A stretch of DNA of 46,055 bases from an uncultured Xanthobacter sp. (GTDB lineage Bacteria > Pseudomonadota > Alphaproteobacteria > Rhizobiales > Xanthobacteraceae), in the NCBI GenBank assembly GCA_937872325.1, contig CALMSN010000222.1, forward strand, positions 1 to 46,055, read 5' to 3'. A program made the translations under genes and the position numbers. How positions within the stretch are numbered: the first letter of the stretch is position 1; every line of letters begins with the position of its first letter. The notes beneath the pieces were generated by a model that worked only from the letters and a program-made list of their open reading frames with translations, was not told the origin of the DNA and ran no database searches. Positions 2,706 through 39,884 of this stretch are shown piece by piece.

Positions 2706-3112
2706 CCGATCACCCCGCGGCCGACGAACACGAGTTCGAAGTCGAAGGTATGATGCCGCCCAAGCCCGTCCGGCGCGAACCGCTCTTCGGCGTGGCCGAG
2801 GCGTCGCACGAAGACGCTGCCCTGTACCTCGCCCACCAGCCCACGGCCGAGCCGGATATAGGACACCACATCCTGCCGTTCATGGTGGCGCTTGATCGCC
2901 GCGTATGCGGTGAGCCCGTCCATGACATGGGGGCGGCACGCGGCACGCAACGACAGCACCGCTTCGCCCAGACCTGTCGGCTGGTAGAACGGCCCCCGGC
3001 CGAACAACTCACCGTCAGGCCAGCTGGCCTCGCTCTGATAGTCGGCGTGCTCCGTCTGCAGGCCGATGATCTCGAAAAGTGCCGTGCCGACACTGGCCAG
3101 AGGGTGACTCAT
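2702..3112 (-). CDS. U: Tail terminator-like protein GpU
   Basis: A 136-residue protein of the P2 GpU family, which caps or connects the tail. The start ASVGTALFEIIGLQTE, the YQPTGLGEAVLSLRAACRP stretch and the end FDFELVFVGRG are typical. It follows the tape-measure gene with an ATGA overlap and precedes X, as in P2. Confidence 0.88.
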   Translation of the reverse strand: MSHPLASVGTALFEIIGLQTEHADYQSEASWPDGELFGRGPFYQPTGLGEAVLSLRAACRPHVMDGLTAYAAIKRHHERQDVVSYIRLGRGLVGEVQGSVFVRRLGHAEERFAPDGLGRHHTFDFELVFVGRGVIG

Positions 3113-5196
3113 GCCAATGCGCCTCCTGTGTCAAAGAGCGCCCTGTTGCGCGCCTCCCGAACGGCCCGGCCTTCGGCGCGGGCGAGCTCGCGGTGCAGAG
3201 CGCCCGCATCCTGCACCCCGTGAACGTGAATGGTCTGGTTGACCGCGACGCGCTGCCCGCCGCCGGTGGCACTCATCTTGGGCTTGCGCGGCGGCAGTGG
3301 CGCCGAGGCCGGAGGGGCGGCGTTGCCGCCAGATGGCGCGAACTGCGGCGCGATCGTGGGCGAGACCGTGAAGTTGAACATGGCCTTCATCCGCTCGGCG
3401 ATCTGCTGCGCGGCCTGCACCGCCGCCTCCCCCTCGCTGGCTACCGCGGCGGCGACCGCGCGCATGGATTGGGCCACCGCCTCAGCGGCGCCCGGCATCT
3501 TCATGGCGCTTTCAAGCTCGCTTTTAAGGGTGTTGATGACGGCCTGCAGCGCCAGCATCTTGTTCTGTGCGCCGAGGTCGCCCTTGTCGGCGGCAGCCTG
3601 GACGCTGGCCAGCTCCTTTTCGAGCTCGATCAACTGCTGCACCATGCCGATGACCGGATGATCCTTGGCCGCGATCGCCCCCTGGAACTGGCGGTTGAGC
3701 TCCGGATCCTGCTTCAGCTTGTCCTTGTCCTCAGGAGACAGCGACTGGCCGCCGGTCAACTTGTCGGACAATGCCTTTACGTCGGCGGCGCGGTCGAGGG
3801 TCGTGTTGATCTTTTCGAGGACTGACGCGAGGCCGTCCGCCATGGCGCCGATCGCCGGGGTGATCGCCTTGCCGATCCGGGTGCCGAGCACCGCAAACTG
3901 GTTGCCGAGCTTCTCCAGCTTCGACGATGTCAAATCATCGAAAATCTTGAACGCCTTCTCGACGCTGCCCTTGTTGCCGACCTCGTCCTTGACCAGCTGC
4001 AGCGCCCGCCGGACCTGGTCGATCGATCCGGCGAGGCGCGCGGCATCGTCCGCATACTCCAGGCCAAACAGATCCAGCAGCGCCCCCATACGCTTGTCGT
4101 CGGGCAACTTGGCGACCCGGTCCAACACTCCAAGGATAGCGTCGACCGGACCTTTTCTAATCAACTGTTCAACCTGCTTGGAGCTAAGACCCAGGCTCTT
4201 CAACCCCACCTGAAAGTTTTTGCCCTGCTTCGAGGCAGTTTGGAGTTTGGAAATCAGCGCGTTGAAGCCGGTGGCCGCCACCTCCGGAGCAGTGCCCATG
4301 GACAGCATCGCCGCGCCAAAGGCGGCAGTCTCTCGCTCCGCCAAGCCGAACGTCTTGGCTGCGGCCCCCACTTTGGTCAGGAATTTAACAATGTCTGCTT
4401 CTCTCGATGCGGTGTTGTCGCCGAGCACGTTGATGGCGTCGCCTATCGCTTCGATTCTGTCTTGGGTCAGCCCGAAGACGGTACCGAGCTCGGCCAGAGA
4501 TTGGCCCGCCTGCTCCGCCGTCATTCCAAAGGCGACGGCCGCCTTGGCGGCGAAGGTGCCGAACCGCACCAGGTCCTCTGTCGGCCGGCCGGCGAAGCCC
4601 GCCTGCGCCACCAGCTGGGCGATCTCCTCCTTGGCCAGCGGCGTCGCCCGGCTGATCTTGAGGATCTCCCGCTCCAGCGCCGCGAATTCGTCCTGCGGCA
4701 TGTCCACGGCCTTTCGGACCTCGGCCATGGCATCCTCGAACTGCATCGCCTCGCGGATAGCGCCCTTGATCGCCAGACCGGCGGCGATGATCCCGCCCGT
4801 GGCGACGCCCGTCGCCGCCGTGACCCCGAGAGCGGCCCCCCCGGCACCGAGGGCGGAGCCGACCTCTGTGCCCGCAGCAGCGACCCGGCCGAGGCGCGCC
4901 CCCACCGCGGCGCTCGCCACCCCGCTCGAACGCCCGAACGCACCCCCGGCCGCACCAGCACCCGCCCCGCGACCAAGCGCCCGGCTGGATTGATCCAGTC
5001 GCTTGACGCTGGCATTGGCCCGGTCGGCCTCTCCGGAGATTTTCTTCAGATCTCGGGCGAGCTTGTCGCCGCCGCCGGTCCCATTGAGCTTTCGGGCCGC
5101 GGCGCCGACGCCGGCGAGGTCGCCCTTGGCCTCGCGAGCCGGCCCCTTGAGAGCGTTGATGAGCCTGAGGCGCAGGGAGACGTCGAGACTGGACAC
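3109..5196 (-). CDS. T: Tail tape-measure protein
   Basis: About 695 residues, the largest helical tail protein. An N-terminal coiled-coil segment is followed by an Ala/Gly-rich hydrophobic stretch (roughly residues 95-150), a conserved tape-measure core (MAEVRKAVDMP, TPLAKEEIAQLVAQAG, GMTEQAGQ-type repeats) and a low-complexity C-terminus rich in Pro and Lys. The GTG at 5196 is preferred to the GTG at 5202 because GGGAGG lies six bases upstream of it but directly abuts 5202. It sits between the E/E' chaperone pair and U, as in P2. Its length should scale with tail length; a fairly short contractile tail is inferred. Confidence 0.92.
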   Translation of the reverse strand: MSSLDVSLRLRLINALKGPAREAKGDLAGVGAAARKLNGTGGGDKLARDLKKISGEADRANASVKRLDQSSRALGRGAGAGAAGGAFGRSSGVASAAVGARLGRVAAAGTEVGSALGAGGAALGVTAATGVATGGIIAAGLAIKGAIREAMQFEDAMAEVRKAVDMPQDEFAALEREILKISRATPLAKEEIAQLVAQAGFAGRPTEDLVRFGTFAAKAAVAFGMTAEQAGQSLAELGTVFGLTQDRIEAIGDAINVLGDNTASREADIVKFLTKVGAAAKTFGLAERETAAFGAAMLSMGTAPEVAATGFNALISKLQTASKQGKNFQVGLKSLGLSSKQVEQLIRKGPVDAILGVLDRVAKLPDDKRMGALLDLFGLEYADDAARLAGSIDQVRRALQLVKDEVGNKGSVEKAFKIFDDLTSSKLEKLGNQFAVLGTRIGKAITPAIGAMADGLASVLEKINTTLDRAADVKALSDKLTGGQSLSPEDKDKLKQDPELNRQFQGAIAAKDHPVIGMVQQLIELEKELASVQAAADKGDLGAQNKMLALQAVINTLKSELESAMKMPGAAEAVAQSMRAVAAAVASEGEAAVQAAQQIAERMKAMFNFTVSPTIAPQFAPSGGNAAPPASAPLPPRKPKMSATGGGQRVAVNQTIHVHGVQDAGALHRELARAEGRAVREARNRALFDTGGALA

Positions 5197-5198
5197 GA

Positions 5199-5399
5199 TC
5201 ACCCTCCCGCGAGACGTCGCAGGAAAGCCCAGCGCTCGCCGTCAATATCCCGCGCCACAGCCCACCACCGGATCAAATCGTCCCAGGGCATCCCCATCAC
5301 CTCGCTGAGTGGCGTCGCGAAGGTTGCAGCCACCCGCCCGGCAATCTCCCGCCAGTCGTTCAGGTCGAGCCGGAGTAGACGGCCTGCCACGTTCGGGGC
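5199..5399 (-). CDS. E' extension reached by -1 frameshift
   Basis: A 66-residue reading frame (APNVAGRLLRLDLNDW...) entered from gene E by a -1 shift at the slippery heptamer T_TTT_TTG (minus strand, 5405-5399). The heptamer is in the exact phase needed: E reads GAT TTT TTG. The fusion would be 200 residues (134 from E plus 66). A GTG at 5390 could start it independently, but no good ribosome site is seen. P2 makes E+E' with the same kind of heptamer. The product is a tail assembly chaperone that coats the tape measure. Confidence 0.85.
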   Translation of the reverse strand, partial: APNVAGRLLRLDLNDWREIAGRVAATFATPLSEVMGMPWDDLIRWWAVARDIDGERWAFLRRLAGG

Positions 5400-10285: not shown

Positions 10286-11293
10286 TCAGTGTCCCCAGGC
10301 CATCCAGCCGAAATTGCACTCATAGTTGGCGGTCACCCCGCCCAGAGACTTGCGCCGCCGCACCAGCATCGACGTCGTGTCGATCGCTTCGATGGCGAGG
10401 GACCAGGAATTGCCGTTGGCCGTCGCGTCCGGGTCATGGACGGTCGCCGTGGCGGTGAGGCAGGCGACCGGGAAGGGCAGCGGAAACGCGATCGTGGCAT
10501 CGGCGGCGCCGCCGCTGTACCTGCCCCATTGCAGGATCAGCCCCGAAGGCAGCCGCTGGAATCCGTTGACGCCGATCGAGGCAGGCAGCAGCGCGTTCAC
10601 GGCCTGGCCGGTCCGCAGCGGGGTCATCAGCACGTCGGAGACGGCTGCGGTCTCCGCCTGCTCCTGGCTGGCCAGCACCGGCTCGGCGAGACCAGGCAGG
10701 CCCAGATTGCTTCGCCCATGGGCCCGCTGCGGCGCGGTCAGCCCCTGGACCGCATCGACCCGTAGCCGCGCAGCGAGCGATGTCGCGACCGCCGCGGCAA
10801 AGCCGGGGTCGTTGCCCACGGCTCCCGCGAGTGCAACAATCGTCGCAAGACCTGGCGGCGCCGCGCCCCCCAGTATCGCGGCAGATGCGGCGTCGACCAG
10901 AGTCTCAACCGCTTCTGTGGTCGGCCGAGCGTCCCAATCCGCGCGCCGCGCCGGCGTCAGCCAGATGCGCGCGGCCGTCTCGGCCACTGCCGAGGCAGGA
11001 ATCGAGCCGCTGTTGATCTGCTCCACCACGTCCTGCGCCGTGGCGGCGGCTGCCGCCAGCGCTGCAACCTGAGCGGAAAGTGCTGCGAGTTGCGGACCGA
11101 CATTGGCCTCGATCACCGATAGCGCCTGGCCCGTTCCGGTCGCGATCAGCCCTTCGAAGTCTGCGGTGACCCCCTCCATGCCGGCGAGACGGGCGGCGAT
11201 GTCGGCGAGAACAGCATTCCAGGTCGCGACATCGAGGCGGGTGTCGAGGTTGCCCTGATAGTTGTTAGATCGGCTCGGCTGAGGCGATGGCAT
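10286..11293 (-). CDS. Tail fibre protein with gp53-like C-terminal domain
   Basis: A 335-residue fibre. The N-terminus (PSRSNNYQGNLDTRL) is followed by an Ala-rich helical shaft (residues 55-180). The C-terminal receptor-binding module begins NGFQRLPSGLILQWGRYSG and continues FPLPFPVACLTATATV, the signature of the gp53-like fibre tip domain. It lies at the fibre (P2 H) position after tail protein I and the large baseplate protein. Its start overlaps the small upstream ORF by 29 bases. Confidence 0.85.
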   Translation of the reverse strand: MPSPQPSRSNNYQGNLDTRLDVATWNAVLADIAARLAGMEGVTADFEGLIATGTGQALSVIEANVGPQLAALSAQVAALAAAAATAQDVVEQINSGSIPASAVAETAARIWLTPARRADWDARPTTEAVETLVDAASAAILGGAAPPGLATIVALAGAVGNDPGFAAAVATSLAARLRVDAVQGLTAPQRAHGRSNLGLPGLAEPVLASQEQAETAAVSDVLMTPLRTGQAVNALLPASIGVNGFQRLPSGLILQWGRYSGGAADATIAFPLPFPVACLTATATVHDPDATANGNSWSLAIEAIDTTSMLVRRRKSLGGVTANYECNFGWMAWGH

Positions 11294-16534: not shown

Positions 16535-17121
16535 GGGGTCTCCTCCGGCTGAGGATCGCCCGGCAGGTACACGCCGCCGACAAGGTCATCAGGGGGCGGC
16601 GAGGCGAAATCCCAAAGTGGCGCCCCCAGTGCGTAGAGCGTCTGTGTCCAGGTGACGCCATAGAGCGCGACGCCCTGTTCAAGCGCGCGCACCGCGAAGA
16701 TCGGCCGATACTCGGGCTGCGGACTGAGTGCGGGGTCGCTGATGTCATCCAGCCCCCAGCGCGCCGTCTGCGGGTCATCAAGGACGTTGAGGATGCCGAC
16801 GCCCAGCGCATGCGCGATCTCGTCACGTTCGATCCGGCGGCCGCCCACCACCTGATCCTCCACGATGAGGTAGCCCGTCCACTCGACGATGCATTCGTAT
16901 TGGCCGGCGAGTTCGCGGCTCACGCGCACCCGCGTGGCTGCCACGGCAATCGTCGGAGCCCTGAAGATCTGCTTTTCGAGGAGGTCGGTGAGGTCGACCC
17001 GACCGGGATGGCGCACCACGTCCACTCCGGGAAACAGGGGGCCGAGAGTGGCGACGATGGCCTTGTGCGCGGTCATCAGCCGGGCATCGGCAAGGCGCTG
17101 CGCCAGGGTCATTGGCTGCAT
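16531..17121 (-). CDS. Phage protein of the Mu gp37/DUF1834-like type
   Basis: A 196-residue protein located between virion morphogenesis gpG and spike V, the position of Mu gp37/DUF1834 head-tail or tail-terminator proteins. Its features (LFPGVDVVRHPGRVDLTDLL, then APTIAVAATRVRVS and VEWTGYLIVEDQ) fit an alpha/beta terminator fold. The family call rests on position and general pattern, so it is moderate. It is coupled by a four-base overlap to V and a one-base overlap to the upstream gene. Confidence 0.65.
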   Translation of the reverse strand: MQPMTLAQRLADARLMTAHKAIVATLGPLFPGVDVVRHPGRVDLTDLLEKQIFRAPTIAVAATRVRVSRELAGQYECIVEWTGYLIVEDQVVGGRRIERDEIAHALGVGILNVLDDPQTARWGLDDISDPALSPQPEYRPIFAVRALEQGVALYGVTWTQTLYALGAPLWDFASPPPDDLVGGVYLPGDPQPEETP

Positions 17122-17615
17122 CAGCGCGCTCCCAGGGCGTTAAGCCAGTCTGTGGCAAGGTGGACGATGTCCCGCTCATCTGCGGCGCTGACGCCGACGA
17201 ATGCGCGGGCGGGAATGGTCACCTTGGCGGCGCGGACCACACGACCCAGGAGCCGGAAGACCAGCATCGGCGACTTGCTGGGTTTGATGATCGCGCCGAA
17301 CTGATGGACATGGGCGAACTCCCAGGCGGCGCCCACTTCGACCTGGTCGCGGCTGGCGATAAAGGCGAGCGAATCGCGCAGATGGCGCCCCGTGCGCAGC
17401 AGGGTCGATGTCCCTTCACGATTGGCTGGCCACGCGGTGCCGTCAGGGGCCGTCTTGGTCTCCTCGATCCGTTCCCGGGTCGAGGACTCCAGCAAGGCGC
17501 CGATGTTGGTCATCAGGTCGGTGCTGTCGGCATCGCCCATCCGGGCGAGCAGAGTTTCCGCTGCCGCCATGTCGGCCACGTCGACCGCGATACGCACGCC
17601 GCCGGCCGCCATCAC
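17121..17615 (-). CDS. G: Virion morphogenesis protein gpG
   Basis: A 164-residue Phage_tail_S/virion morphogenesis protein. The signature is LESSTRERIEETKTAPDGTAWPANREGTSTLLRTG, given here in two parts: residues about 43-58, then the WP and TLLRTG motifs; it is followed by VGAAWEFAHVHQFGAIIKP and IPARAFVGVSAADERDI. It helps complete heads or tails in Mu and P2 (S). It is coupled to the DUF1320 gene upstream. Confidence 0.88.
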   Translation of the reverse strand: MMAAGGVRIAVDVADMAAAETLLARMGDADSTDLMTNIGALLESSTRERIEETKTAPDGTAWPANREGTSTLLRTGRHLRDSLAFIASRDQVEVGAAWEFAHVHQFGAIIKPSKSPMLVFRLLGRVVRAAKVTIPARAFVGVSAADERDIVHLATDWLNALGAR

Positions 17616-18079
17616 CAGCCCCTCAGACGGTCGCGCGTCATGACGCGGTCTGGCGCCACAACCAGCGCCTCGTTTGGCGAGCCGGTCCCGCCCGTGACAC
17701 CGTCATCCACACCACCCGAGCCCGGAGACACGTCGAACGTGAGCCCACCGGCACCGGCGGCGATCGCTTCCAGTCGCTTCAGGGCGTCATCCCGGGCGTC
17801 CTTGACGCGTTCAGACGAGCGAGAAAAGGACAAGGCCACCCGGTAGAGCGCGATGTCGATCGCGTACGTCCGCAGGATGTCGCGCGACGCCGCCGACAGG
17901 TTGTCGAGCTCCGACGCCGTGTAACGGCGGAACAGGATCCCGTGGATGTCGGCGCCGGCGGCCTCGATCGCCCGCTCGACCCGAACAGTGTCGAGCGCGC
18001 CCGTCACTTCGTCGGCGCCCAGCAGGACGAGCTGTGCCGGATGGGCGGCCTCGATATCGGCGATGGTGGCATAGCTCAT
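17612..18079 (-). CDS. DUF1320 head-tail protein (Mu gp36 type)
   Basis: A 155-residue protein with the typical start MSYATIADIEAAHPAQLVLL, a middle VRVERAIEAAGADIHGILFRRY, and a helical C-terminus, as in DUF1320 of Mu-like phages. The family is thought to be a head-tail connector component. It lies 13 bases after acb2 and overlaps gpG by four bases. Confidence 0.88.
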   Translation of the reverse strand: MSYATIADIEAAHPAQLVLLGADEVTGALDTVRVERAIEAAGADIHGILFRRYTASELDNLSAASRDILRTYAIDIALYRVALSFSRSSERVKDARDDALKRLEAIAAGAGGLTFDVSPGSGGVDDGVTGGTGSPNEALVVAPDRVMTRDRLRGW

Positions 18080-18092
18080 TTGCGCTCGCCCT

Positions 18093-18323
18093 TCACCGCG
18101 TGACGTGCTTGACCGCCCACATGACGGCCTCTTCGATCTTGGTGGCGGCGATGGAGAGCTCGCGGCTCTGGCCGGCCGCCTGGATCAGGCTCAGGAACCC
18201 GGCGCCCTGATCCTTGATGGCCTGCATCTGCTCCTTCTCCTCCGCGGAGAGGACGCGATACTGGTGGCGCATCGCGTTGTTCACGGTGCGTTGATCGGAC
18301 GTGGAGCTCACTTGGTCGGACAT
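18093..18323 (-). CDS. acb2: Acb2-like anti-CBASS cyclic nucleotide sponge
   Basis: A 76-residue protein whose last 55 residues match the Acb2/Tad1-type hairpin domain: HQYRVLSAEEKEQMQAIKDQG, then SRELSIAATKIEEAVMWAVK. Conserved features include Tyr22-Arg23, Lys37-x2-Gly40, Ser53-Arg54 and Trp69. From established knowledge, Acb2 of Pseudomonas phage PaMx33 binds CBASS second messengers as a hexamer, and a Tyr and a Lys in the equivalent segments matter for binding. It is expressed with head genes; AAGGGA lies seven bases before the ATG. An in-frame extension to 18401 runs through a terminator and was rejected. A role blocking CBASS (and perhaps Thoeris-like) signalling is inferred from the family. 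Confidence 0.88.
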   Translation of the reverse strand: MSDQVSSTSDQRTVNNAMRHQYRVLSAEEKEQMQAIKDQGAGFLSLIQAAGQSRELSIAATKIEEAVMWAVKHVTR

Positions 18324-18341
18324 GAGGATCCCTTCGCTGCG

Positions 18342-18375
18342 AAAAAGGTGGACGGGGCGGCGGACCGTCCCGTCC
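18342..18375 (-). terminator. Intrinsic terminator between capsid block and acb2
   Basis: On the minus strand GGACGGG (reverse complement of 18369-18375) pairs with CCCGTCC (complement of 18350-18356). An inner CGG/CCG pair closes a TCCG loop, and a run of five T follows (18346-18342). This is the clearest rho-independent terminator in the window. It lies between the small capsid-region gene (stop at 18416) and acb2. Partial read-through would set capsid-region and downstream genes at different levels. Confidence 0.7.
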
Positions 18376-18415
18376 GGGGGCGCCCGAGGGCACCGTGCCA
18401 TCGCAGCGCGCGCTA

Positions 18416-18886
18416 CTACTTGGCCTCAGGCCAGTCGCCGGAGATGGCGCCCGCCTGGCGCAACTCGCCGTGGCGACCATGGGACAGTGCGATGGGATCG
18501 CCCGGGTCGTAGGACCGGCCGTCGAGCAGCACCCGCGAGGTCGCCAGGAATTCGTGGGTCGGCTCGGGGGCGACGGCCGTCGCCGCCCCCGACGCCTTGC
18601 CGCCTTTCCCCGCCACCTTCTGTGTCGGGGTGGTCCCGGGCGATTCCGACCTTGCGGAATCGTCGGGCGCGGCCTTGCCTGAGCCATCGCCCGGAGCAGG
18701 AGGGACGGGCGAACCCACCCCGCCCCGTTCGGACGCCGGCGGCCCCTCGGGTATGGAGTTCGGGGCGGCGGGCTGAACCCCGCCCGCAGCTTCGGCCGGC
18801 GCCTCCGCTGCGGGACCGCTACCGGCGCTGGGGGCCTTGCGAGCCGTACCAGACCGCCCCTGCTGTGTATTCTTGGAGGCTGCCAT
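18416..18886 (-). CDS. Low-complexity capsid-adjacent protein
   Basis: A 156-residue protein with a disordered Ala/Pro/Gly-rich N-terminal two thirds and a compact C-terminal domain (HEFLATSRVLLDGRSYDPGD, then PIALSHGRHGELRQAGAI). Similar small domains occur beside capsid genes of Mu-like phages. The start ATG 18886 is directly downstream of the capsid stop. It may be a head decoration or connector protein; this is inferred from position only. Confidence 0.68.
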   Translation of the reverse strand: MAASKNTQQGRSGTARKAPSAGSGPAAEAPAEAAGGVQPAAPNSIPEGPPASERGGVGSPVPPAPGDGSGKAAPDDSARSESPGTTPTQKVAGKGGKASGAATAVAPEPTHEFLATSRVLLDGRSYDPGDPIALSHGRHGELRQAGAISGDWPEAK

Positions 18887-18887
18887 G

Positions 18888-19850
18888 TCAGGCCACCGCA
18901 TTCTGGATCAGGTAGCCGACGTCCTTGGCCACCACGAGTTCCTTGACCCGCTCGCCGGCGCGCACCAGCGTGCCGCCCTCGAGGCCCATGTGAGGATCTT
19001 CGATGCGGCCGGCGACCTCAGCCCCGAACTGGGCCGTCAGGCCCCAGGTGATCCCCTGATCCGTGCTGGCCTGGGGGTTGATGTGGAGCGCGGCGATGTG
19101 CTTGCCCCACACCCGATTGAGCTGCGCCCCCTGTCCCTTGGCGGCCGTGTTCACGAACCCTTCGCCGATCAGCAGCTTCTGGATCTCGAACAGGTCCGCA
19201 AACTGCTGGCGGGTGAGGAGGCCATCCTCGGTGAGGCCCCCCTTCACGGCCTTGAGCAGCTTGGGGTGCCGGCGCAGCACCGTCCAGGCCGCAAACCCCA
19301 TCGTCACCACGTTGGGGCGATAGACCAAGGTGCCGTCGAGAGCGGACTGGATGACACCGATCGGGTCGGAATTCGCGTAGTCCGAGAGCTGCGATGTTCC
19401 GGCCAGCGTCACCCGGCGGCTGGCTGCATAGTTGTTGGGGTCCTGCACCAGGCCGGCGACGCGGACCTCACGACCGAGCTTGACGATCTCCATAACCCCC
19501 TCGACGGCACGGGCCTCGGGGTCGTAGGTGGAGGTGCCGGCAGCGCGCGCCGCGGCAGCTGCCCGGATGTCGGAGCTGGGCACCGGACTGTCGATGCCGT
19601 AGTCATTGACCTCGTCGGTCTTCTCGGAGCCGGTGAACTCGACCTGCCCGACCCGTCCGCGCCGCCCGACGCGCAGTTCCGGCACCGAAAAGCCCTCGGC
19701 GAGCGGGTACTCGGTCCATCCGAAGCGCTCCTGCGCAACATCCCGACGCGGCAGCACCTGGTCAGCGATGAGGTTGGCAGCGGGATTGCGATAGGCGATG
19801 GCGACGGCGGTAAGGACCGGATCGACGGTAAACGGACGGCGGGGGGCCAT
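18888..19850 (-). CDS. Major capsid protein
   Basis: A 320-residue capsid protein starting MAPRRPFTVDPVLTAVAIAY. Typical features are an N-terminal ANLIADQVLPRRDVA, a GWTEYPLAEGFSVPEL segment and a helix-rich C-terminal half with GFAAWTVLRRHPKLLKAVKG and RVKELVVAKDVGYLIQNAVA. It follows protease/scaffold and decoration genes, the usual head order. It is unlike Mu gpT in detail and belongs to the capsid type of other alphaproteobacterial and Pseudomonas transposable phages. An upstream extension to 20162 overlaps the decoration gene and was rejected. Confidence 0.88.
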   Translation of the reverse strand: MAPRRPFTVDPVLTAVAIAYRNPAANLIADQVLPRRDVAQERFGWTEYPLAEGFSVPELRVGRRGRVGQVEFTGSEKTDEVNDYGIDSPVPSSDIRAAAAARAAGTSTYDPEARAVEGVMEIVKLGREVRVAGLVQDPNNYAASRRVTLAGTSQLSDYANSDPIGVIQSALDGTLVYRPNVVTMGFAAWTVLRRHPKLLKAVKGGLTEDGLLTRQQFADLFEIQKLLIGEGFVNTAAKGQGAQLNRVWGKHIAALHINPQASTDQGITWGLTAQFGAEVAGRIEDPHMGLEGGTLVRAGERVKELVVAKDVGYLIQNAVA

Positions 19851-19881
19851 GGGAACCTCGGTTTGATGAGAGGGGCCGCCG

Positions 19882-20241
19882 TCAGGCGGAATAGTAGCCC
19901 GGCGCGATGTGCAACGGGATGACGTCGCCGACGGCGCCGGCGGCCAGCGCATAGCCGACGATCCGCACGCCGGCGCCGGCCACCGCCTGCACCGCGCGGC
20001 CCTGTGCATCGGCGACAAGCGGCTTGCCTGCGGCGACGTTGCCACCGCAGGTGACCTCGCCGAGGCCGACCATGAGAACGTCGAGCATGCCGCCGGCATC
20101 CGCCCCCAAGGAGTCGGAGACGCCCACCACATCTGCGGTGGCGGCCGCCGCCTGGGCGGCACCGCCGGCGCCGAGGACGACGATGCGATAACCTGCGACG
20201 GCGGCTGACGCCGGAAAGGATTTGATGAGCAGCGGGGTCAC
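19882..20241 (-). CDS. Capsid decoration (DUF2190-like) protein
   Basis: A 119-residue protein rich in Ala, Gly and Val, with an AGGMLDVLMVGLGEVTCGGNV core and the ending GDVIPLHIAPGYYSA, which resembles DUF2190/capsid cement proteins. It sits between protease/scaffold and capsid, the standard site, and overlaps the protease gene by four bases. Confidence 0.8.
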   Translation of the reverse strand: MTPLLIKSFPASAAVAGYRIVVLGAGGAAQAAAATADVVGVSDSLGADAGGMLDVLMVGLGEVTCGGNVAAGKPLVADAQGRAVQAVAGAGVRIVGYALAAGAVGDVIPLHIAPGYYSA

Positions 20242-20729
20242 TTGGCGCCTCCCTTGACGGCGATGACGGCGTCAGCCGCAGAGATCTGGACGCCCTCGGC
20301 CGCGAGCCGGGCGCGGTAGGCGATTGCCCGCCCCGCCAGCGCCACAGGCGTCTCGGCATCGCCGGCGTCGTCCGGGACTTCGCGGTGATCGAGACCACTT
20401 GCCGCCAGGCCCGCCGGCGTGACCAAGAGCATGGCTTCGACCTGGGCAACACCCTCGTCGGTCGCGCACATGGCCTCGAAGGCGCTACGCTGGGCCGGAA
20501 CGATTTTCTTGGCCTTCAGTGCGTCGCCGATCAGCGTCTCAACCCGGACCTTACGGCCTACCGCCTTGATGGTGTCCAGCTCGGTGGACACCGCGGCAAG
20601 CGTGGCAAGCGCCTGCTCGTGCACCGCCTTGTCCACTTTGGCCGCGCCGAGGGCGGCGATCGCGGAGAGGCATGCGGCGTCGTCGGCGGTCTCGGCAAGG
20701 CCGAGCGCCAGGGCGATGGCTTTGGGCAC
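20238..20729 (-). CDS. Z: Scaffold protein from internal start (Z type)
   Basis: A nested 163-residue product starting at GTG 20729, in frame within the protease gene (residue 169 of it). GAGGAG lies six bases upstream of that GTG, an unusually good ribosome site for an internal position. The segment VPKAIALALGLAETADDAAC then begins the helical scaffold part. Mu makes scaffold Z from within gene I in the same way. Start usage is inferred. Confidence 0.65.
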   Translation of the reverse strand: MPKAIALALGLAETADDAACLSAIAALGAAKVDKAVHEQALATLAAVSTELDTIKAVGRKVRVETLIGDALKAKKIVPAQRSAFEAMCATDEGVAQVEAMLLVTPAGLAASGLDHREVPDDAGDAETPVALAGRAIAYRARLAAEGVQISAADAVIAVKGGAK

Positions 20730-21233
20730 TGTGGACTCCTCAATGGCACCGGACGCGTCGGCGACGGCCGGCATGGCAAGGGCGGGGGCGGTGACGAGGG
20801 CGACCGAGTGCATCCAGGTCGCGGCCCCCGTCTCCGTGTGATGGAACGTGGGGGAGACGTAGCGATGGGTGCGGGCCGCGAGCACCGCCTGGCCCTCCGC
20901 CAGCCAGTCGATCCGCGTGGCGTAGAGCCCGTCCGGACGGGCGGCGAGCGCCTTGATCCAGCCGACCGCGTCGGCACGCTCCCCCAGCGCCGCACGGCGC
21001 GACGTGGCGTGGTCGAGGTCGAGTGGGATGTCGATGCCATCGGCAGCAAAGCGTGCAGCGAGGACCGCTGGGTCAAAGCTGTAGGTCCGGCCGTCCCGGG
21101 TCCGGACCTCGCCAGCCGGCGCGATCTTGATTTCAGACGGCAGCGCTCCGCCAGCAGCCAGATCGGCCACCTCCCCGGCGATGACGCCGGTGGCATAGCA
21201 GGACTGCGTCCGGGGCTGGTGTCGGTGCGGCAT
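20238..21233 (-). CDS. I: Prohead protease / scaffold (Mu gpI family)
   Basis: A 331-residue Mu_I protease. The N-terminal domain includes IKIAPAGEVRTRDGRTYSFD, LDLDHATSRRAALGERADAV with the candidate catalytic His in DHAT, and a RYVSPTFHHTETG segment, followed by MHSVALVTAPALAMPAV. The C-terminal part is a helical scaffold. Self-cleavage and cleavage of head proteins occur during maturation in the family. It starts a head operon and has a dyad about 44 bases upstream of its start. Confidence 0.9.
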   Translation of the reverse strand: MPHRHQPRTQSCYATGVIAGEVADLAAGGALPSEIKIAPAGEVRTRDGRTYSFDPAVLAARFAADGIDIPLDLDHATSRRAALGERADAVGWIKALAARPDGLYATRIDWLAEGQAVLAARTHRYVSPTFHHTETGAATWMHSVALVTAPALAMPAVADASGAIEESTVPKAIALALGLAETADDAACLSAIAALGAAKVDKAVHEQALATLAAVSTELDTIKAVGRKVRVETLIGDALKAKKIVPAQRSAFEAMCATDEGVAQVEAMLLVTPAGLAASGLDHREVPDDAGDAETPVALAGRAIAYRARLAAEGVQISAADAVIAVKGGAK

Positions 21234-21842: not shown

Positions 21843-23195
21843 TTACGGCCTCCCCTCCGCCACAGCGCCTGCCGCCCGGATCGCGTCGCCATCCTCCCGC
21901 TGCCCGGCGAGGTACTTCTCCGGTGCCCGCATCATGGTGGCGACCCGATAGCCGCCCTTTCCGTCGGGCGCGAGGATCAGGTAAGTCCATTTCGCGTCGT
22001 CCGCGATCCGCATCATGATCTGGAGCGCGCCGTCGCGCCTGCGCCGCCGCACCTCACCGCGCTCGATGAGCTCCTGGATCTGCGCCCATTGCCACGCTGC
22101 CATGTGGTGGCCGGAATTATGCGCGACCGAAAAATCCGTCGCCGTCACCACCGTCCGCCCCGGCGCGAGCGTGCTCACCAGGTCGTCGGGGAGCACGGCG
22201 ATCGGCATCGGCGCATCATCCCAGACCCTCAGATAGGCCGCCGGGTCCGCCCGGTCCGCCTTGCTCAGCGCCGACCATTGTGCCTCCCGGCGCTGTGCCC
22301 GCCAGATGAAGCTCTCGAACCCGGGAGATCCGACCTGTCGCTGCACCATTGCGCGGGCCACCGCTGGCGGCTGCTCGATCAGGCGGTCCACAAGCTGCTG
22401 GCCAAGTGTCTTGGCTCGGCCGATACCGGGATTCGTGTGCCAACCAGGATCGATCCCCCTCGGGACCATCGTGCGCTCGCCGGTCCGCCGGTTGACGTAG
22501 GGCCGCGCATCTTCGGGCGGTGCGGCGTCGGTGTACCAGATCCCGTCCGCGCCACGCGCGGCGTCGAGGTAGCGATCCCGCTGGCTCAGGGAGATCTGCC
22601 TCACCGCGCATTTGCAGCCCCAGCCATTGGGCGGAAACATCCAGCGCCAGGCCGGATCATCCACCGGCAGGATGACGCCGACGAACCGCAGATGGTCCGC
22701 ACGCGGCTCTGCCGATGTGGTGCGGACATATAGGAAATACGGCAGCGCCGCCTTCGTACGCTGCGCTCTCTCCCATTGGCCCGCCGCACGGGCGGAGCGC
22801 ATGTTGCTCCAGAAGGTGGTCTCCAGCCTGCGAGCCTGCGAGAAGTCCACCCGCTTGACGCGCCCGCTTTTCGGGTCCGCCACGTCCCGCGGCCCCCACC
22901 AGCCGAGCGGGGTGAGGCGCCGGAGCATCTCCTCCCGGAAGGCTTCGAAGCCCTTGCCCTCGGCGATCGCCTTGTCGATGCCGGCCCGGAATTCGGAGAG
23001 CACCTTGGCGTCGATGACGCCCGCGACCGTGAACGCGTGCGCGTGCTCCTCGCCCCAGACGTCCCGCCAGTCGAAATTCGGAGCCAGCTCCTTGCGCCGG
23101 AAAAAATCCAGCACCTCCGGGGGAGCATCCATGCCCTTGCGGACCGCGCCAGCGAGAGCCGCAAGGAGGAGGGCGAAGATCTGGCGTCGGCGCAC
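21843..23195 (-). CDS. F: MuF head morphogenesis protein with C-terminal nuclease-like domain
   Basis: A 450-residue protein. The N-terminal MuF/SPP1 gp7 region includes DAPPEVLDFFRRKELAPNFD, RRLETTFWSNMRSARAAGQW and the PPNGWGCKCAVRQIS motif. The C-terminal part (about 330-440) carries FSVAHNSGHHMAAWQWAQIQ, ELIERGEVRRRRRDG and WTYLILAPDGKGGYRVATM, which resembles the PBECR barnase/RelE-like nuclease domains fused to MuF proteins. The start is GTG 23195; ATG 23132 (MDAPPEV) is an alternative. It follows the portal gene. Confidence 0.82.
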   Translation of the reverse strand: MRRRQIFALLLAALAGAVRKGMDAPPEVLDFFRRKELAPNFDWRDVWGEEHAHAFTVAGVIDAKVLSEFRAGIDKAIAEGKGFEAFREEMLRRLTPLGWWGPRDVADPKSGRVKRVDFSQARRLETTFWSNMRSARAAGQWERAQRTKAALPYFLYVRTTSAEPRADHLRFVGVILPVDDPAWRWMFPPNGWGCKCAVRQISLSQRDRYLDAARGADGIWYTDAAPPEDARPYVNRRTGERTMVPRGIDPGWHTNPGIGRAKTLGQQLVDRLIEQPPAVARAMVQRQVGSPGFESFIWRAQRREAQWSALSKADRADPAAYLRVWDDAPMPIAVLPDDLVSTLAPGRTVVTATDFSVAHNSGHHMAAWQWAQIQELIERGEVRRRRRDGALQIMMRIADDAKWTYLILAPDGKGGYRVATMMRAPEKYLAGQREDGDAIRAAGAVAEGRP

Positions 23196-23200
23196 GGGGG

Positions 23201-24850
23201 TCAGTCAGCCACGTCGCCGAGGCCGCGGGCGATGGCGGTCAGCCGGGCGAGGCGCTCGGCGAGCTGATTGCCTCCGCCCTTGCCGGCGATCTGCGGCAGC
23301 AGCGCGATGATCTCGTCATAGCTACGCGCCTGGGCGAGGCCCGCGCGTAGCTTCGCAAAGATCGGGTCCGCGACCTCCTCCCAGTCCGCCATCTCCTCGG
23401 CGAGGACCGTGTCGAGCTCCGCGTCGACGTCGAGCGCGCCAGTGTCGGCCGCGAGCGCAGCGAAGGCGCGGCAGCCGGTGCAGGCGCATCCGCCCGGGTG
23501 GCGCAGGCCGGCGCCGAGCCCGGCGCGGCCTTCATCCTCCTTCGCGCCTGATTTAACGGGCCTTTGCGGGGGCTTTTGCGGCGATCCTTCATCCTCTTCC
23601 GCCTGAGCCGCGGCCGGCGGCATCAGGACGTCCTCGTCCTCGGCCGGCTCGGTCAGGCCGATCCGCTCGCGCATGTCCCGCTGCGAAACCTTCAGGCCGA
23701 GGGGCACCAGGACGCCCACCGCCGCGGCCAGCTCCTTGATGTCCTCCGGCTCTGCCACCGGGAGCTCGATGCGCGGATAGACGTCCTGGACGCCGAAGTT
23801 GAATGCCACGAAGGGCTCTACCAGATCGCGGTTGAGGGTATTCGCGAGCTGCCGGGCGTCGGCCTTGAGGATGTCGAGGCGGACCTCGTTGTGCACCTTG
23901 GCCTGCGCCTCCGAAGATCCGTCGTCGGAGGTCATGGTCTGACCGACCACCAGCTTGGAGATCTGGCGGTCGATATAGTTGAGCAGCCCGCCGAACACCG
24001 CCTCTCCCTGGGTGCCGGAGACCTCATGGAACTCGATTTCCATGCCTTGCGGGATGATCGCTGCGGCGTCGTTGGAAATGGAGGTCACCGCCCTCAGCAG
24101 GGTGCGCTTGTCCGACTCCGAGGCGCCGGGGTGATATCGGCCAACCCGAAGCGGGACGCCGTAGATCTCGGCAAATGCCGCCCAGTCCTTCAGCCCGAAC
24201 GACTGCAGCAGGAAGGCCCACGCCGCCGCGCGGGCAAAGCCGCGGCGGATGGGAATGCCCATCTTGGCACGCGGCAGGTGCCGCAGGAACGCCCACTCCG
24301 GCAGCGGGTCGCCGTCGCGGCTGCCGTCGCGGGCCAGGCGCAGTTCCTGCATGGCGACGCGATCAAACCGGAAGTATCGCGGGTCGCGCCAGATGTAGCG
24401 CGACGGCCGCAGGCTGCCGCGCTCGTATTCCCAGACCATCTCCACCACCGAGACACCTTTGGCGATGCCATCGGTAAGCGCGCCGGCGGCCTCCAGCAGC
24501 TGCGAGTCCTCCATCAGCTCGCGCACCGCATCGGCGATCCTTGCCGGCACGCCCTTCGGGACTTGCAGCGACATCTCTATCGTCTCGATGGCGAGGCGGC
24601 GGGTCTGCACCTGGCTGGCATAGTGCAGGTAGCGCTCCTCCATCTCCTCGGCGAGGGTGAGGTAGTCCCGGATCTCCCCGGTGTCGGCCCGCCGCAGCGT
24701 GGCGGCCAGGCGCTCCGGCGTCAGGCCGGTGGCGACCCGGTCGGCGAGGGTCGCCCGGACGCCGGCAACCGTCGGCGTGGCGATCTCCCGGCCTAGCGCG
24801 CCCCGCTCGATGGGTCGGCCATACTGGTCGACGATGGAGGATTTCACCAT
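23201..24850 (-). CDS. Portal protein (DUF935, Mu gp29)
   Basis: A 549-residue DUF935 portal: N-terminal VDQYGRPIERGALGREIATP, a central IRDYLTLAEEMEERYLHYAS and QVQTRRLAIETIEMSLQVPK, then the DWAAFAEIYGVPLRVGRYHP and KLVVGQTMTSDDGSSEAQAK motifs that mark this family. The C-terminal extension includes GCACTGCRAF, a Cys-containing segment also seen in other Mu-like portals. It forms the DNA gate of the head and overlaps the TerL gene by seven bases. Confidence 0.92.
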   Translation of the reverse strand: MVKSSIVDQYGRPIERGALGREIATPTVAGVRATLADRVATGLTPERLAATLRRADTGEIRDYLTLAEEMEERYLHYASQVQTRRLAIETIEMSLQVPKGVPARIADAVRELMEDSQLLEAAGALTDGIAKGVSVVEMVWEYERGSLRPSRYIWRDPRYFRFDRVAMQELRLARDGSRDGDPLPEWAFLRHLPRAKMGIPIRRGFARAAAWAFLLQSFGLKDWAAFAEIYGVPLRVGRYHPGASESDKRTLLRAVTSISNDAAAIIPQGMEIEFHEVSGTQGEAVFGGLLNYIDRQISKLVVGQTMTSDDGSSEAQAKVHNEVRLDILKADARQLANTLNRDLVEPFVAFNFGVQDVYPRIELPVAEPEDIKELAAAVGVLVPLGLKVSQRDMRERIGLTEPAEDEDVLMPPAAAQAEEDEGSPQKPPQRPVKSGAKEDEGRAGLGAGLRHPGGCACTGCRAFAALAADTGALDVDAELDTVLAEEMADWEEVADPIFAKLRAGLAQARSYDEIIALLPQIAGKGGGNQLAERLARLTAIARGLGDVAD

Positions 24851-37715: not shown

Positions 37716-39884
37716 TCAGCCGGCGGATGCCGGATTCTGTAGGTCGAGCGGCCCATAGGTCGCCCGCAGGCCCCGGTATTCGGGTCCTTGCGCGTAGCCG
37801 ACGAGCCATTGCGTCTCGTCCGGGCTGATGGCCTCGCCACGGGCGAGGCGCATTTCCAGGCCGCGGGCGCGCTGCCAGCGACCCTTCGGCGTGTCCGGTG
37901 CATGCAGCGGCTGAACGGTCGGCTCCTGCGCCGCCTCCGCCACAAGCCGCGCCCGCATAGCCTCGACCTCCGTGGAGATCGCCGGCTTCGCCGGTGCCGG
38001 CGCCGCCGCCTGGGCCGCGGCCTCGATCGCCGGCGTGGTGTGGACTTCCGTGCGCTTCGGGAACGCCACGAGGGTGCCCTCCTGCCTGGCCTGATGGCGC
38101 AGGGCGAGGTCCACCAGCCGCGGACCGCGCGTGAGGCGCTTGGCTTCGGCCCGCGCATCCGCCGTGCGCTCGGAGATGATGCGCGCCTGCTCCGCCCGCG
38201 CCGCGGCCACGGCGGCCTTGGGGTCGATGCCGGCGAGTTCTGGGCACGTCGCCTCGCCGAGGTACTCCTCGCCGTTCGGCCCGAAGAGGAAGGCGCGGCC
38301 CATGTCGGCCGGGTCCATGCGGACGAACACCTGGGTGCCAGGCATCAGGTGCGGCGCGAGATAGTGGCTGTGGTCGATCCTTATGCCGCGCTTGGTGATG
38401 ACGCGCAGGCCGTCCTTTCCGGCGGCGGGGGCGAGCAGCATGTCAAGGGCGCGTTCATCGACCACGCGGATGGTGTCGCGGGAGGTGGCGGCCGTCTGAA
38501 AGGGCGTGGCGCCGGCAAGGCCTTCGTGTGGGCGGTGGTCGTACTTCTTCGCCACCCACTCGTCGGCGTAGCGCTGCACCTCGGCGGCGGTGAGCTCGAC
38601 GCACAGCGCCTCGCGCGGGTCCTCGCCGAGGCGCTGGGCGAAGCTCTTGCGGGCTTCGATCACCTTCCGGTCGGCAACTGAATGCCCGATGAAGCCCGGC
38701 AGCAGGCGCACCGCGCCATGCTGGAAGGTGCGGATGGCCCGCTCGATGTGGCCCTTCTGTTCCGGGGCGAACGGGTCGGACAGCCACCGCCCGATGCCGA
38801 TGGCGGCAAACACGCGCTGGGTGGCCTTCGCCACGAAGTCCGAGCCGTTGTCGGTCTTCACCGTCTCCGGGACGCCCCAAGCGAGTACGGCCCGCCGCAT
38901 GAGGAGGCAAACGGCTTCCGCCCGCGGGGTGCGGGTGACGTAGACGATGAGGCGCCGCGTGAAAATATCGATGGCGACATAGACGTTATGGCGGCCGTCG
39001 ACGCAGAGCATGTCGACCGGGGACGCGTCGATCATCCAGAGCTGGTTCGGAGCGCGCACATGCGCCATCGAATTGGTGCCCGACAGCCGATATTTAGACT
39101 TGAAGCCGTCCGGATCGGTGAGAGCGCTGAGCTCGACCTTGTGGGCCACTTTCCAGGCCTTCAGGGCAGCCTGAAAGGTACGGATCGGCGGCAGGGCGAT
39201 CAGTTCGCCGGTGGGGGCGACCAGCTCCTCGCCGAACTCGCCCCCCACCAGGTCGCGGATATGGTCCGCGGTGAACAGCGGATTGCGCGAGAGGCATGCG
39301 AGGGCGAAGGTCTTTACCCTGCCGCCATTGGCGGTCTCCAGCACACCCTTACCCCGCCGGTTGGCGCCCTTGTCCACGGCGAGGCGGTGCGTGGCACCGT
39401 CCCGGCGGGCCGCACGCCAGTTGTAGAGGGTCGCCCGGGAAACTGATTTGACGGCTGCGCGGACCCAGTCGGCAACCGCGATCTCACCCGCGCAATACGC
39501 AGCGCAGAATAGGGCGTCGGCGCGCTTTTGCGTGACGCCGGAGGCCGCGACGTAGCGATCGAGCGCGGCGAGGATGGCGAGGCGGGCATCGCGCTGCGCG
39601 GCCGCCGGCGCCGGCGGCTCGATGGCTGGGGCCGGGAGCGATGCGGCGGGTGTGACGCCCACCGAAAGCTGGGCGCCCGTCGCCGCCAGCTCGCGCCGGG
39701 CGTATTCGAGGCGGGCCGCCTCTGGCAGGGCCGATAGCGGGTATTCCCGGCCGCCGCCACGGCCGATACAGGCGCGGGACAGCCAGACCTCGACGCCGGC
39801 TCGGCGGCCGATGTTTCGCTCTGTACCCGCCAATCCCGGCAGCGCCAGCTCTGCGATTTCACGCGCGGTAAACCACTCTTTCAT
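37716..39884 (-). CDS. A: MuA-like DDE transposase
   Basis: A 722-residue transposase. An N-terminal Mu-type winged helix (WFTAREIAELALPGLAGTER) and bipartite DNA-binding region precede the DDE catalytic core with Asp286 (WMIDASP), Asp345 (KTDNGSDF) and Glu381 (GHIERAI); D345 and E381 are separated by 35 residues. A MuA C-terminal beta-barrel (DHSHYLAPHLMPGTQVFVR) and a helical tail follow. The start ATG 39884 is preceded by GGAGG at eight bases. It should bind the end sites at 69-150 and 45597-46000. Confidence 0.95.
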   Translation of the reverse strand: MKEWFTAREIAELALPGLAGTERNIGRRAGVEVWLSRACIGRGGGREYPLSALPEAARLEYARRELAATGAQLSVGVTPAASLPAPAIEPPAPAAAQRDARLAILAALDRYVAASGVTQKRADALFCAAYCAGEIAVADWVRAAVKSVSRATLYNWRAARRDGATHRLAVDKGANRRGKGVLETANGGRVKTFALACLSRNPLFTADHIRDLVGGEFGEELVAPTGELIALPPIRTFQAALKAWKVAHKVELSALTDPDGFKSKYRLSGTNSMAHVRAPNQLWMIDASPVDMLCVDGRHNVYVAIDIFTRRLIVYVTRTPRAEAVCLLMRRAVLAWGVPETVKTDNGSDFVAKATQRVFAAIGIGRWLSDPFAPEQKGHIERAIRTFQHGAVRLLPGFIGHSVADRKVIEARKSFAQRLGEDPREALCVELTAAEVQRYADEWVAKKYDHRPHEGLAGATPFQTAATSRDTIRVVDERALDMLLAPAAGKDGLRVITKRGIRIDHSHYLAPHLMPGTQVFVRMDPADMGRAFLFGPNGEEYLGEATCPELAGIDPKAAVAAARAEQARIISERTADARAEAKRLTRGPRLVDLALRHQARQEGTLVAFPKRTEVHTTPAIEAAAQAAAPAPAKPAISTEVEAMRARLVAEAAQEPTVQPLHAPDTPKGRWQRARGLEMRLARGEAISPDETQWLVGYAQGPEYRGLRATYGPLDLQNPASAG

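What the first reader, a model, noticed from the sequence alone, without database searches (positions are those of the whole stretch)
18093..18323. Acb2-like anti-CBASS gene inside the head operon of an alphaproteobacterial Mu-like phage
The 76-residue product carries the Acb2/Tad1-type domain pattern (YRVLSAEE..., IKDQG, SRELSIAATK, EEAVMWAVK). Acb2 of Pseudomonas Mu-like phage PaMx33 is an established sponge for CBASS cyclic oligonucleotides. Its place next to the capsid gene means late expression, or supply through the structural operon. It points to CBASS-type (possibly Thoeris) pressure in the host lineage.
Basis: partly seen in the sequence, partly recalled or inferred. Interest (0 to 1): 0.82.

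Follow-up and report, generated by a model that had tools for sequence, protein, structure and literature searches.

The report
Phage sponge gene inside head operon
A Mu-like virus of bacteria carries, among its shell genes, a small gene of the known Acb2 family, whose studied members soak up bacterial alarm molecules; its position between two shell genes is a spot where related viruses carry different extras or nothing.

Summary
The minus-strand ORF 18093-18323 encodes 76 aa that match Pfam PF24729 (Acb2/Tad1 hairpin) at E 1.6e-19, 70.3 bits against a cut-off of 27. AlphaFold2 gives a confident helical hairpin. The eight best PDB folds are Acb2 and T4 Vs.4. Residues Y22, K37 and R54 align with PaMx33 Y11, K26 and R67. 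It is very probably a cyclic-oligonucleotide sponge, a new member of a known family; binding is untested. Beyond the finding, acb2 sits in an exchangeable slot between the gene after the capsid gene and gp36. The closest head relative, L133, has 93 nt there; L134 has the same acb2 type; L148 has a different Acb2 lineage; others carry an acyl-carrier-like ORF, a tRNA-Met or nothing. The host assembly holds an edge fragment of a CBASS-type SAVED effector and ThsB-like TIR genes, but no complete system was found.

The parts
18093..18323 (-). acb2-like gene, 76 aa (P0001), helical hairpin 27-50/54-75
18329..18334 (-). Shine-Dalgarno-like AAGGGA of acb2
   Evidence: read by eye
18350..18375 (-). 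GC-rich hairpin GGACGGG...CCCGTCC in the 92-nt leader; a similar one lies in L133 (no acb2) and L134 (acb2)
   Evidence: whole-leader energy z -1.6 (window), -2.2 (L133, L134) against mononucleotide shuffles
18089..18094 (-). GAAGGG overlapping the acb2 stop codon, likely ribosome site of gp36
   Evidence: read by eye
17612..18079 (-). Mu gp36-like head-tail adaptor, right flank of the slot
18416..18901 (-). 161-aa ORF in the gp35 position (my gene caller kept only 18416-18616), left flank of the slot
   Evidence: no Pfam or PHROG hit; similar in L133, L134
18888..19850 (-). major capsid protein, 320 aa as called (ORF listing gives 18888-20162 from the first GTG)
   Evidence: (phrog_1005 E 3.7e-92)
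20238..21233 (-). Mu I-like head maturation protease
21843..23195 (-). Mu F-like minor head protein
23201..24850 (-). Mu portal
37716..39884 (-). Mu-type transposase

Best explanation
The gene encodes a short Acb2-type sponge. Shown here: family membership, helical-hairpin fold, conservation of the residues that correspond to pocket positions of PaMx33/T4 Acb2, and its place as an extra gene in the head operon of a Mu-like phage. Inferred: it assembles as a hexamer, is made late with the capsid proteins, and sequesters (does not cleave) cyclic oligonucleotides of CBASS: dinucleotides through the Y22/K37 pocket, trinucleotides through R54 at the trimer interface. The host effector therefore stays off while capsids are made. 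It occupies an exchangeable slot between the gp35-position gene and gp36.
For: PF24729 70.3 bits, cut-off 27; PaMx33 Acb2 and T4 Vs.4 score 66.1 and 71.4 on the same model. Profile of 58 sequences against PDB: Acb2 homolog 43 1.4e-4, Tad1 3.9e-4, Vs.4 1.1e-3, p26 3.9e-3. Model mean pLDDT 85.7, hairpin 90-99; Foldseek ranks 1-8 all Acb2/Vs.4, probability 0.99-1.00. Y22 in 55, K37 in 55 and R54 in 58 of 58 aligned sequences; Y22 and K37 identical in window, L148, PaMx33 and T4. Y8A of T4, the position of Y22 here, disrupts dinucleotide binding (PMC12657218, passages). Slot comparison: L133 lacks it, L134 has it, L148 has another Acb2 lineage. Host: SAVED-endonuclease fragment followed by a cyclase-like start.
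Against: No binding data. The phmmer hit to known Acb2 is weak (E 0.42), and Foldseek E-values are weak (0.08-0.18; none at or below 0.001) for so small a protein. Only the monomer was modelled; pTM is 0.65 and residues 1-20 are low. The F82 of T4 that stacks on the ligand is T75 here, and the C-terminal tail is missing. A60 replaces the Lys found in 37 of 58 sequences. T4 has Asp at the R54 position, so R54 is not universal in Acb2. No SMODS or AGS_C in the host assembly; the SAVED piece is 44 of 190 positions at a contig edge, and the cyclase-like piece also weakly resembles an antitoxin model.
Confidence: 0.82

Rival explanations
1. A sponge whose real target is the Thoeris signal (gcADPR) or another cyclic nucleotide, not CBASS.
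For: The host assembly holds two ThsB-type TIR genes on contig C324; Tad1 shares the SRE...EEAxMW hairpin (E 3.9e-4).
Against: The model has no strands, whereas Tad1 has an N-terminal beta-sheet beside its two helices (review PMC12043709, passages). The fold search prefers Acb2/Vs.4 (probability 0.99-1.00) to Tad1 (0.14-0.28). The only SIR2_2 hit of the host lies beside nif-like genes and is unlikely to be ThsA (my reading of the ORFs).
Confidence: 0.1
2. A small structural or assembly protein of the head (gp35-type) that merely shares a helical hairpin.
For: It lies between head genes.
Against: Absent at the slot of L133, the closest head relative (MCP 90% identical); no PF24729 match in 19 of 21 capsid-related records, some of them fragments. 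Only 2 of the 80 viral-contig relatives show tblastn similarity to the window's head proteins within the fetched flanks of up to 5 kb. Neighbours of relatives scatter over 141 and 127 PHROG families, none in more than 5 members.
Confidence: 0.04
3. A decayed or specialised sponge that has lost one of the two pockets.
For: A60 in place of Lys; no aromatic at the T4 F82 position; no tail after residue 76; dN/dS about 0.66 against L134.
Against: Y22, K37 and R54 kept; Ala at position 60 recurs in L045 and L134; Thr at position 75 is shared by 55 of 58; frame open, dN below dS in the six pairs where dS could be computed.
Confidence: 0.15

Closest known systems
Acb2 of Pseudomonas phages PaMx33/PaP2 (p26; PDB 8H2J, 8IXZ)
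   Same: Same Pfam family and fold; Y11/K26/R67 equal Y22/K37/R54
   Different: 93 aa with a longer helix-helix loop and a C-terminal tail; next to replication genes in a non-Mu-like phage
T4 Vs.4 (Acb2; PDB 7UQ2)
   Same: Same family; Y8/K23 kept; similar second helix
   Different: F82 and tail absent here; the position of R54 is Asp in T4
Tad1 (PDB 7UAV, 8KBF)
   Same: C-terminal hairpin with SRE...EEALMW
   Different: Tad1 has an N-terminal beta-sheet; no strands here
Short Acb2 group, mostly of Alphaproteobacteria (Sinorhizobium phage Aussie AUSSIE_37 and IMG/VR relatives)
   Same: 55-76% identical over the match, similar length in most, same conserved N-terminus STSDxRTVNNxMRH
   Different: Mostly other head modules and gene positions

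Membership tests
Acb2 (PF24729) | match over the curated family cut-off | tested here: met
   70.3 bits against 27
Acb2 (PF24729) | two long antiparallel helices | tested here: met
   helices 27-50 and 54-75, pLDDT 90-99; best PDB folds Acb2/Vs.4
Acb2 (PF24729) | dinucleotide pocket residues (PaMx33 Y11, K26; T4 Y8) | tested here: met
   Y22 and K37; 55 of 58 each.
Acb2 (PF24729) | trinucleotide pocket residue (PaMx33 R67, role recalled) | tested here: met
   R54, 58 of 58; T4 has Asp there
Acb2 (PF24729) | aromatic at the T4 F82 position that stacks on the ligand | tested here: not met
   T75; PaMx33 also lacks it (Ala), so it does not define the family
Acb2 (PF24729) | hexamer; binds and releases cyclic oligonucleotides unchanged | not testable with these tools
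   needs protein
Tad1 | N-terminal beta-sheet domain | tested here: not met
   no strands in the model, 76 aa
Mu-like phage head operon | Mu portal, F, I protease, gp36, gp27, GemA, Mu transposase | tested here: met

The most novel reading that the evidence does not exclude
Mu-like head operons keep an exchangeable late-expressed cargo slot just downstream of the capsid gene, and anti-signalling sponges have entered it at least twice (window/L134 type and the PaMx33-like type of L148). The sponge is then made from the same transcript as proteins that defence systems sense (capsid for Thoeris, prohead protease for one CBASS), so the antidote is dosed together with the trigger. The subfamily replaces the C-terminal tail of known Acb2 by a conserved N-terminal arm (STSDxRTVNNxMRH), which may form part of a differently tuned pocket.
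Probability: 0.25. Interest if true: 0.6.

Novelty: new member of a known kind. Interest (0 to 1): 0.42.

Why it matters
It places a short Acb2 inside the structural operon of a Mu-like phage, probably of Alphaproteobacteria. Annotated close relatives are few: 4 of 50,697 phage records by tblastn (two of them the same virus), all labelled hypothetical. A preprint calls Acb2 relatively rare and restricted to specific phage groups (PMC11722364, passages); 214 relatives of this short type in IMG/VR suggest a wider spread. A slot shared by two Acb2 lineages, acyl-carrier-like ORFs and a tRNA gives a simple place to look for further phage cargo: between the gp35-position gene and gp36. If sponge and capsid trigger are co-transcribed, the timing of counter-defence can be tested directly.

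Tried and rejected
PADLOC gave no match for the protein. ARAGORN found no tRNA in the window's slot. No terminator- or promoter-like site was found in 17000-20500; the window leader is only weakly more stable than mononucleotide shuffles (z -1.6). A decayed acb2 in the spacers of six genome relatives was sought with the family profile and not found (best E 0.38). gp36 in 385 genomes of the class gave only the own genome, so the slot comparison rests on 297 genomes of the order and viral contigs. SIR2_2 on host contig C160 was set aside as ThsA because it sits among nif-like genes (my reading). A tblastn of the host edge peptides against four SMODS loci gave nothing useful. VIA-align was not available. 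The original Acb2 papers are not held under the two DOIs tried, so the roles of Y11, K26 and R67 are recalled.

Limits of the counts. Of 83 loci with a tblastn hit, acb2 was called as a gene in 81; one search reduced these to 72 by near-identical Acb2. A1 took 133 of 135 listed upstream-side genes (two of L060 left out) and A2 127 of 132 downstream-side genes (five minus-strand genes of L065, L072, L076 and L079 left out); one protein can match several PHROG families, and the tool shows only the first 25 of each tally. A3 used 57 of 99 distinct relatives, chosen by hand for diversity, plus the window. The tree used 93 rows: 90 of the 99, the window, L134 and L114; nine short or remote rows were left out, and its bootstrap had not settled. 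Gene starts of relatives were picked by my script near the expected place.

Full report
What is there. The minus-strand ORF 18093-18323 encodes 76 aa. Pfam PF24729, Acb2/Tad1 hairpin, matches residues 22-76 at E 1.6e-19, 70.3 bits with a cut-off of 27. On the same model PaMx33 Acb2 scores 66.1 and T4 Vs.4 71.4 bits. It is the only PF24729 match in the 4.0-Mb assembly that holds the window.

Fold. AlphaFold2 on 55 sequences gives mean pLDDT 85.7 and pTM 0.65, with helices 27-50 and 54-75 at 90-99 and a poorly placed N-terminus. Foldseek against PDB puts eight chains of Acb2 and Vs.4 at ranks 1-8, probability 0.99-1.00 but E only 0.08-0.18; ranks 9-14 are Tad1 at probability 0.14-0.28. The profile of 58 sequences finds Acb2 homolog 43, Tad1, Vs.4 and p26 among PDB sequences.

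Residues. Aligned with L148, PaMx33 and T4, Y22 and K37 are identical in all. Among 58 aligned sequences Y22 is kept in 55, K37 in 55, R54 in 58. T4 Y8A disrupts dinucleotide binding, and F82 stacks on the ligand (PMC12657218, passages). That PaMx33 K26 and R67 line the di- and trinucleotide pockets is recalled. Differences: no residue equal to F82 (T75), no tail, a shorter helix-helix loop, A60 where 37 of 58 have Lys, and a conserved N-terminal arm STSDxRTVNNxMRH that PaMx33 and T4 lack. T4 has Asp where R54 stands.

Surroundings. The phage is Mu-like: transposase, GemA, gp27, portal, F, I protease and gp36 domains, and all but one of the genes that my caller placed between 176 and 39884 lie on the minus strand (the exception is a 42-aa call at 970-1098). 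acb2 lies between a 161-aa ORF in the gp35 position and gp36. It ends 13 nt before gp36, whose probable ribosome site overlaps the acb2 stop (sequence). Late expression follows from Mu-like gene order; it is inferred.

The slot. I fetched 21 viral contigs with a related capsid protein. In L133, the nearest (capsid 90%, gp36 71% identical), the gp35-position gene and gp36 are 93 nt apart and acb2 is absent; in L134 (capsid 74%) a 62% identical acb2 is in the same place. PF24729 rings in 2 of the 21 records, L134 and L148; the records may be fragments. The L148 protein, at 3350-3607, is of another lineage: 23% identical to the window's, 62.5 bits on PF24729, but only 3.4 bits on the profile of the window's own group; its PDB hit is p26 (E 5.7e-5). 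It too lies between a short ORF after the capsid gene and gp36, with a possible 55-aa ORF behind it. In L149, L151, L152 and L153 the slot holds a phosphopantetheine-binding (acyl-carrier-like) ORF; there gp36 was assigned by position before gp37 and by eye. L149 and the genome relative L128 have a tRNA-Met there.

Genome relatives and tally. gp36 has matches in 9 of 297 genomes of the order, the own one included. In six of the eight others (L123, L124, L125, L127, L128, L129) both flanks are readable and the spacer is 107-253 nt without acb2. Counting the window, which was chosen for its acb2, 3 of 23 readable slots hold an Acb2, and 2 of 22 without it. The 23 are 16 viral contigs with a gp36 or gp37 match (L138 and L139 look like one phage), 6 genome loci and the window; 5 viral contigs gave no right flank. 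The window and L134 proteins are sisters at modest support, 90/71, so these two may share one gain; L148 needs a second one.

Spread. 214 stretches of viral contigs encode a relative; the best 80 are 58-76% identical. Only L054 and L073 of these 80 show tblastn similarity to the window's head proteins within the fetched flanks. Neighbouring genes scatter: 133 upstream-side proteins hit 141 PHROG families and 127 downstream-side ones 127 families at E <= 1e-5, none shared by more than 5; endolysin, DNA polymerase, terminase, portal, helicase and exonuclease are among them. So the family is mobile and not tied to the head. Of 27 genome-contig relatives, 21 have titles of Alphaproteobacteria by my reading; no tool names the window's own class, so the host class is inferred. 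In Sinorhizobium phage Aussie the gene lies between head-tail adaptor and stopper; in another record (ctCJ8213) it lies among early genes near an exonuclease.

Pressure in the host. In the own assembly SMODS and AGS_C have no match. SAVED matches at the first bases of contig C3 (44 of 190 positions, 46.7 bits). PADLOC calls this piece a CBASS endonuclease effector (E 4.6e-18) and the 37 residues after it weakly a cyclase (E 0.0021); the same 37 residues also weakly match a Pfam antitoxin model below its cut-off (E 0.0055). The contig then continues with an unrelated gene. This suggests a broken or misassembled CBASS operon. Contig C324 has two ThsB-type TIR genes; no ThsA was identified. In the host family 18 of 149 genomes have SMODS, 17 over the cut-off, and 5 of 149, the own genome included, PF24729. 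The assembly is 93% complete with 2.9% contamination, so these traces are suggestive only.

Mechanism. Most likely the protein forms a multimeric sponge that holds cyclic oligonucleotides made on infection, so that SAVED- or TIR-type effectors stay off. Thoeris can be triggered by major capsid proteins (PMC12578639, abstract), and one CBASS sensor interacts with a prohead protease (PMC12409349, passage). Placing a sponge in the same operon as these triggers would match dose and timing. This last step is a hypothesis. Carrying Acb2 also has a cost where Panoptes is present (PMC12657218, passages).

In print. Searches of the held library listed no paper that, by title and start of abstract, treats Acb2 in a Mu-like head operon; in none of the 20 papers listed (of 21 found) did 'mu-like' and 'acb2' both occur. 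The review PMC12043709 (passages) says Acb2 occurs in 239 tailed phages. The originals are not held under the DOIs I tried, and I recall, without having checked, that some Pseudomonas Mu-like phages carry Acb2. I therefore file this as a new member of a known kind.

Noticed in passing
L149:5712-6236, L151:691-1815, L152:1392-1643, L153:5857-6162: Phosphopantetheine-binding (acyl-carrier-like) ORFs lie between the gp35-position gene and gp36 of related Mu-like head operons. Why a phage head operon would carry one is unexplained.
   Followed up: partly
L128:2104-2180 (-), L149:5622-5695 (+): tRNA-Met (cat) genes in the same slot of two relatives.
   Followed up: partly
L123, L124, L127, L128 spacer before gp36: A hairpin with a TGGAAG(G) loop and differing stems lies shortly before gp36 (read by eye, not folded); it may hold the ribosome site.
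   Followed up: no
L013:4992-5717, L074:4992-5681: The Acb2 hairpin reads on in frame into a C-terminal extension that looks hydrophobic (242 and 230 aa), possibly a fusion to a membrane protein.
   Followed up: no
G119 contig C35 (SMODS 10591-11073, PF24729 31932-32078): A CD-NTase domain and an Acb2/Tad1 hairpin about 21 kb apart on one contig of a genome of the host family.
   Followed up: no
L157:1-278 (G000 contig C3): SAVED effector end plus cyclase-like start at a contig edge, followed by an ORF on the other strand that looks like a PHA synthase by eye: a broken or misassembled CBASS operon.
   Followed up: partly
window 3358-3450 (-): ARAGORN tRNA-Ala call inside a 697-aa ORF at 3109-5202, probably false.
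   Followed up: no
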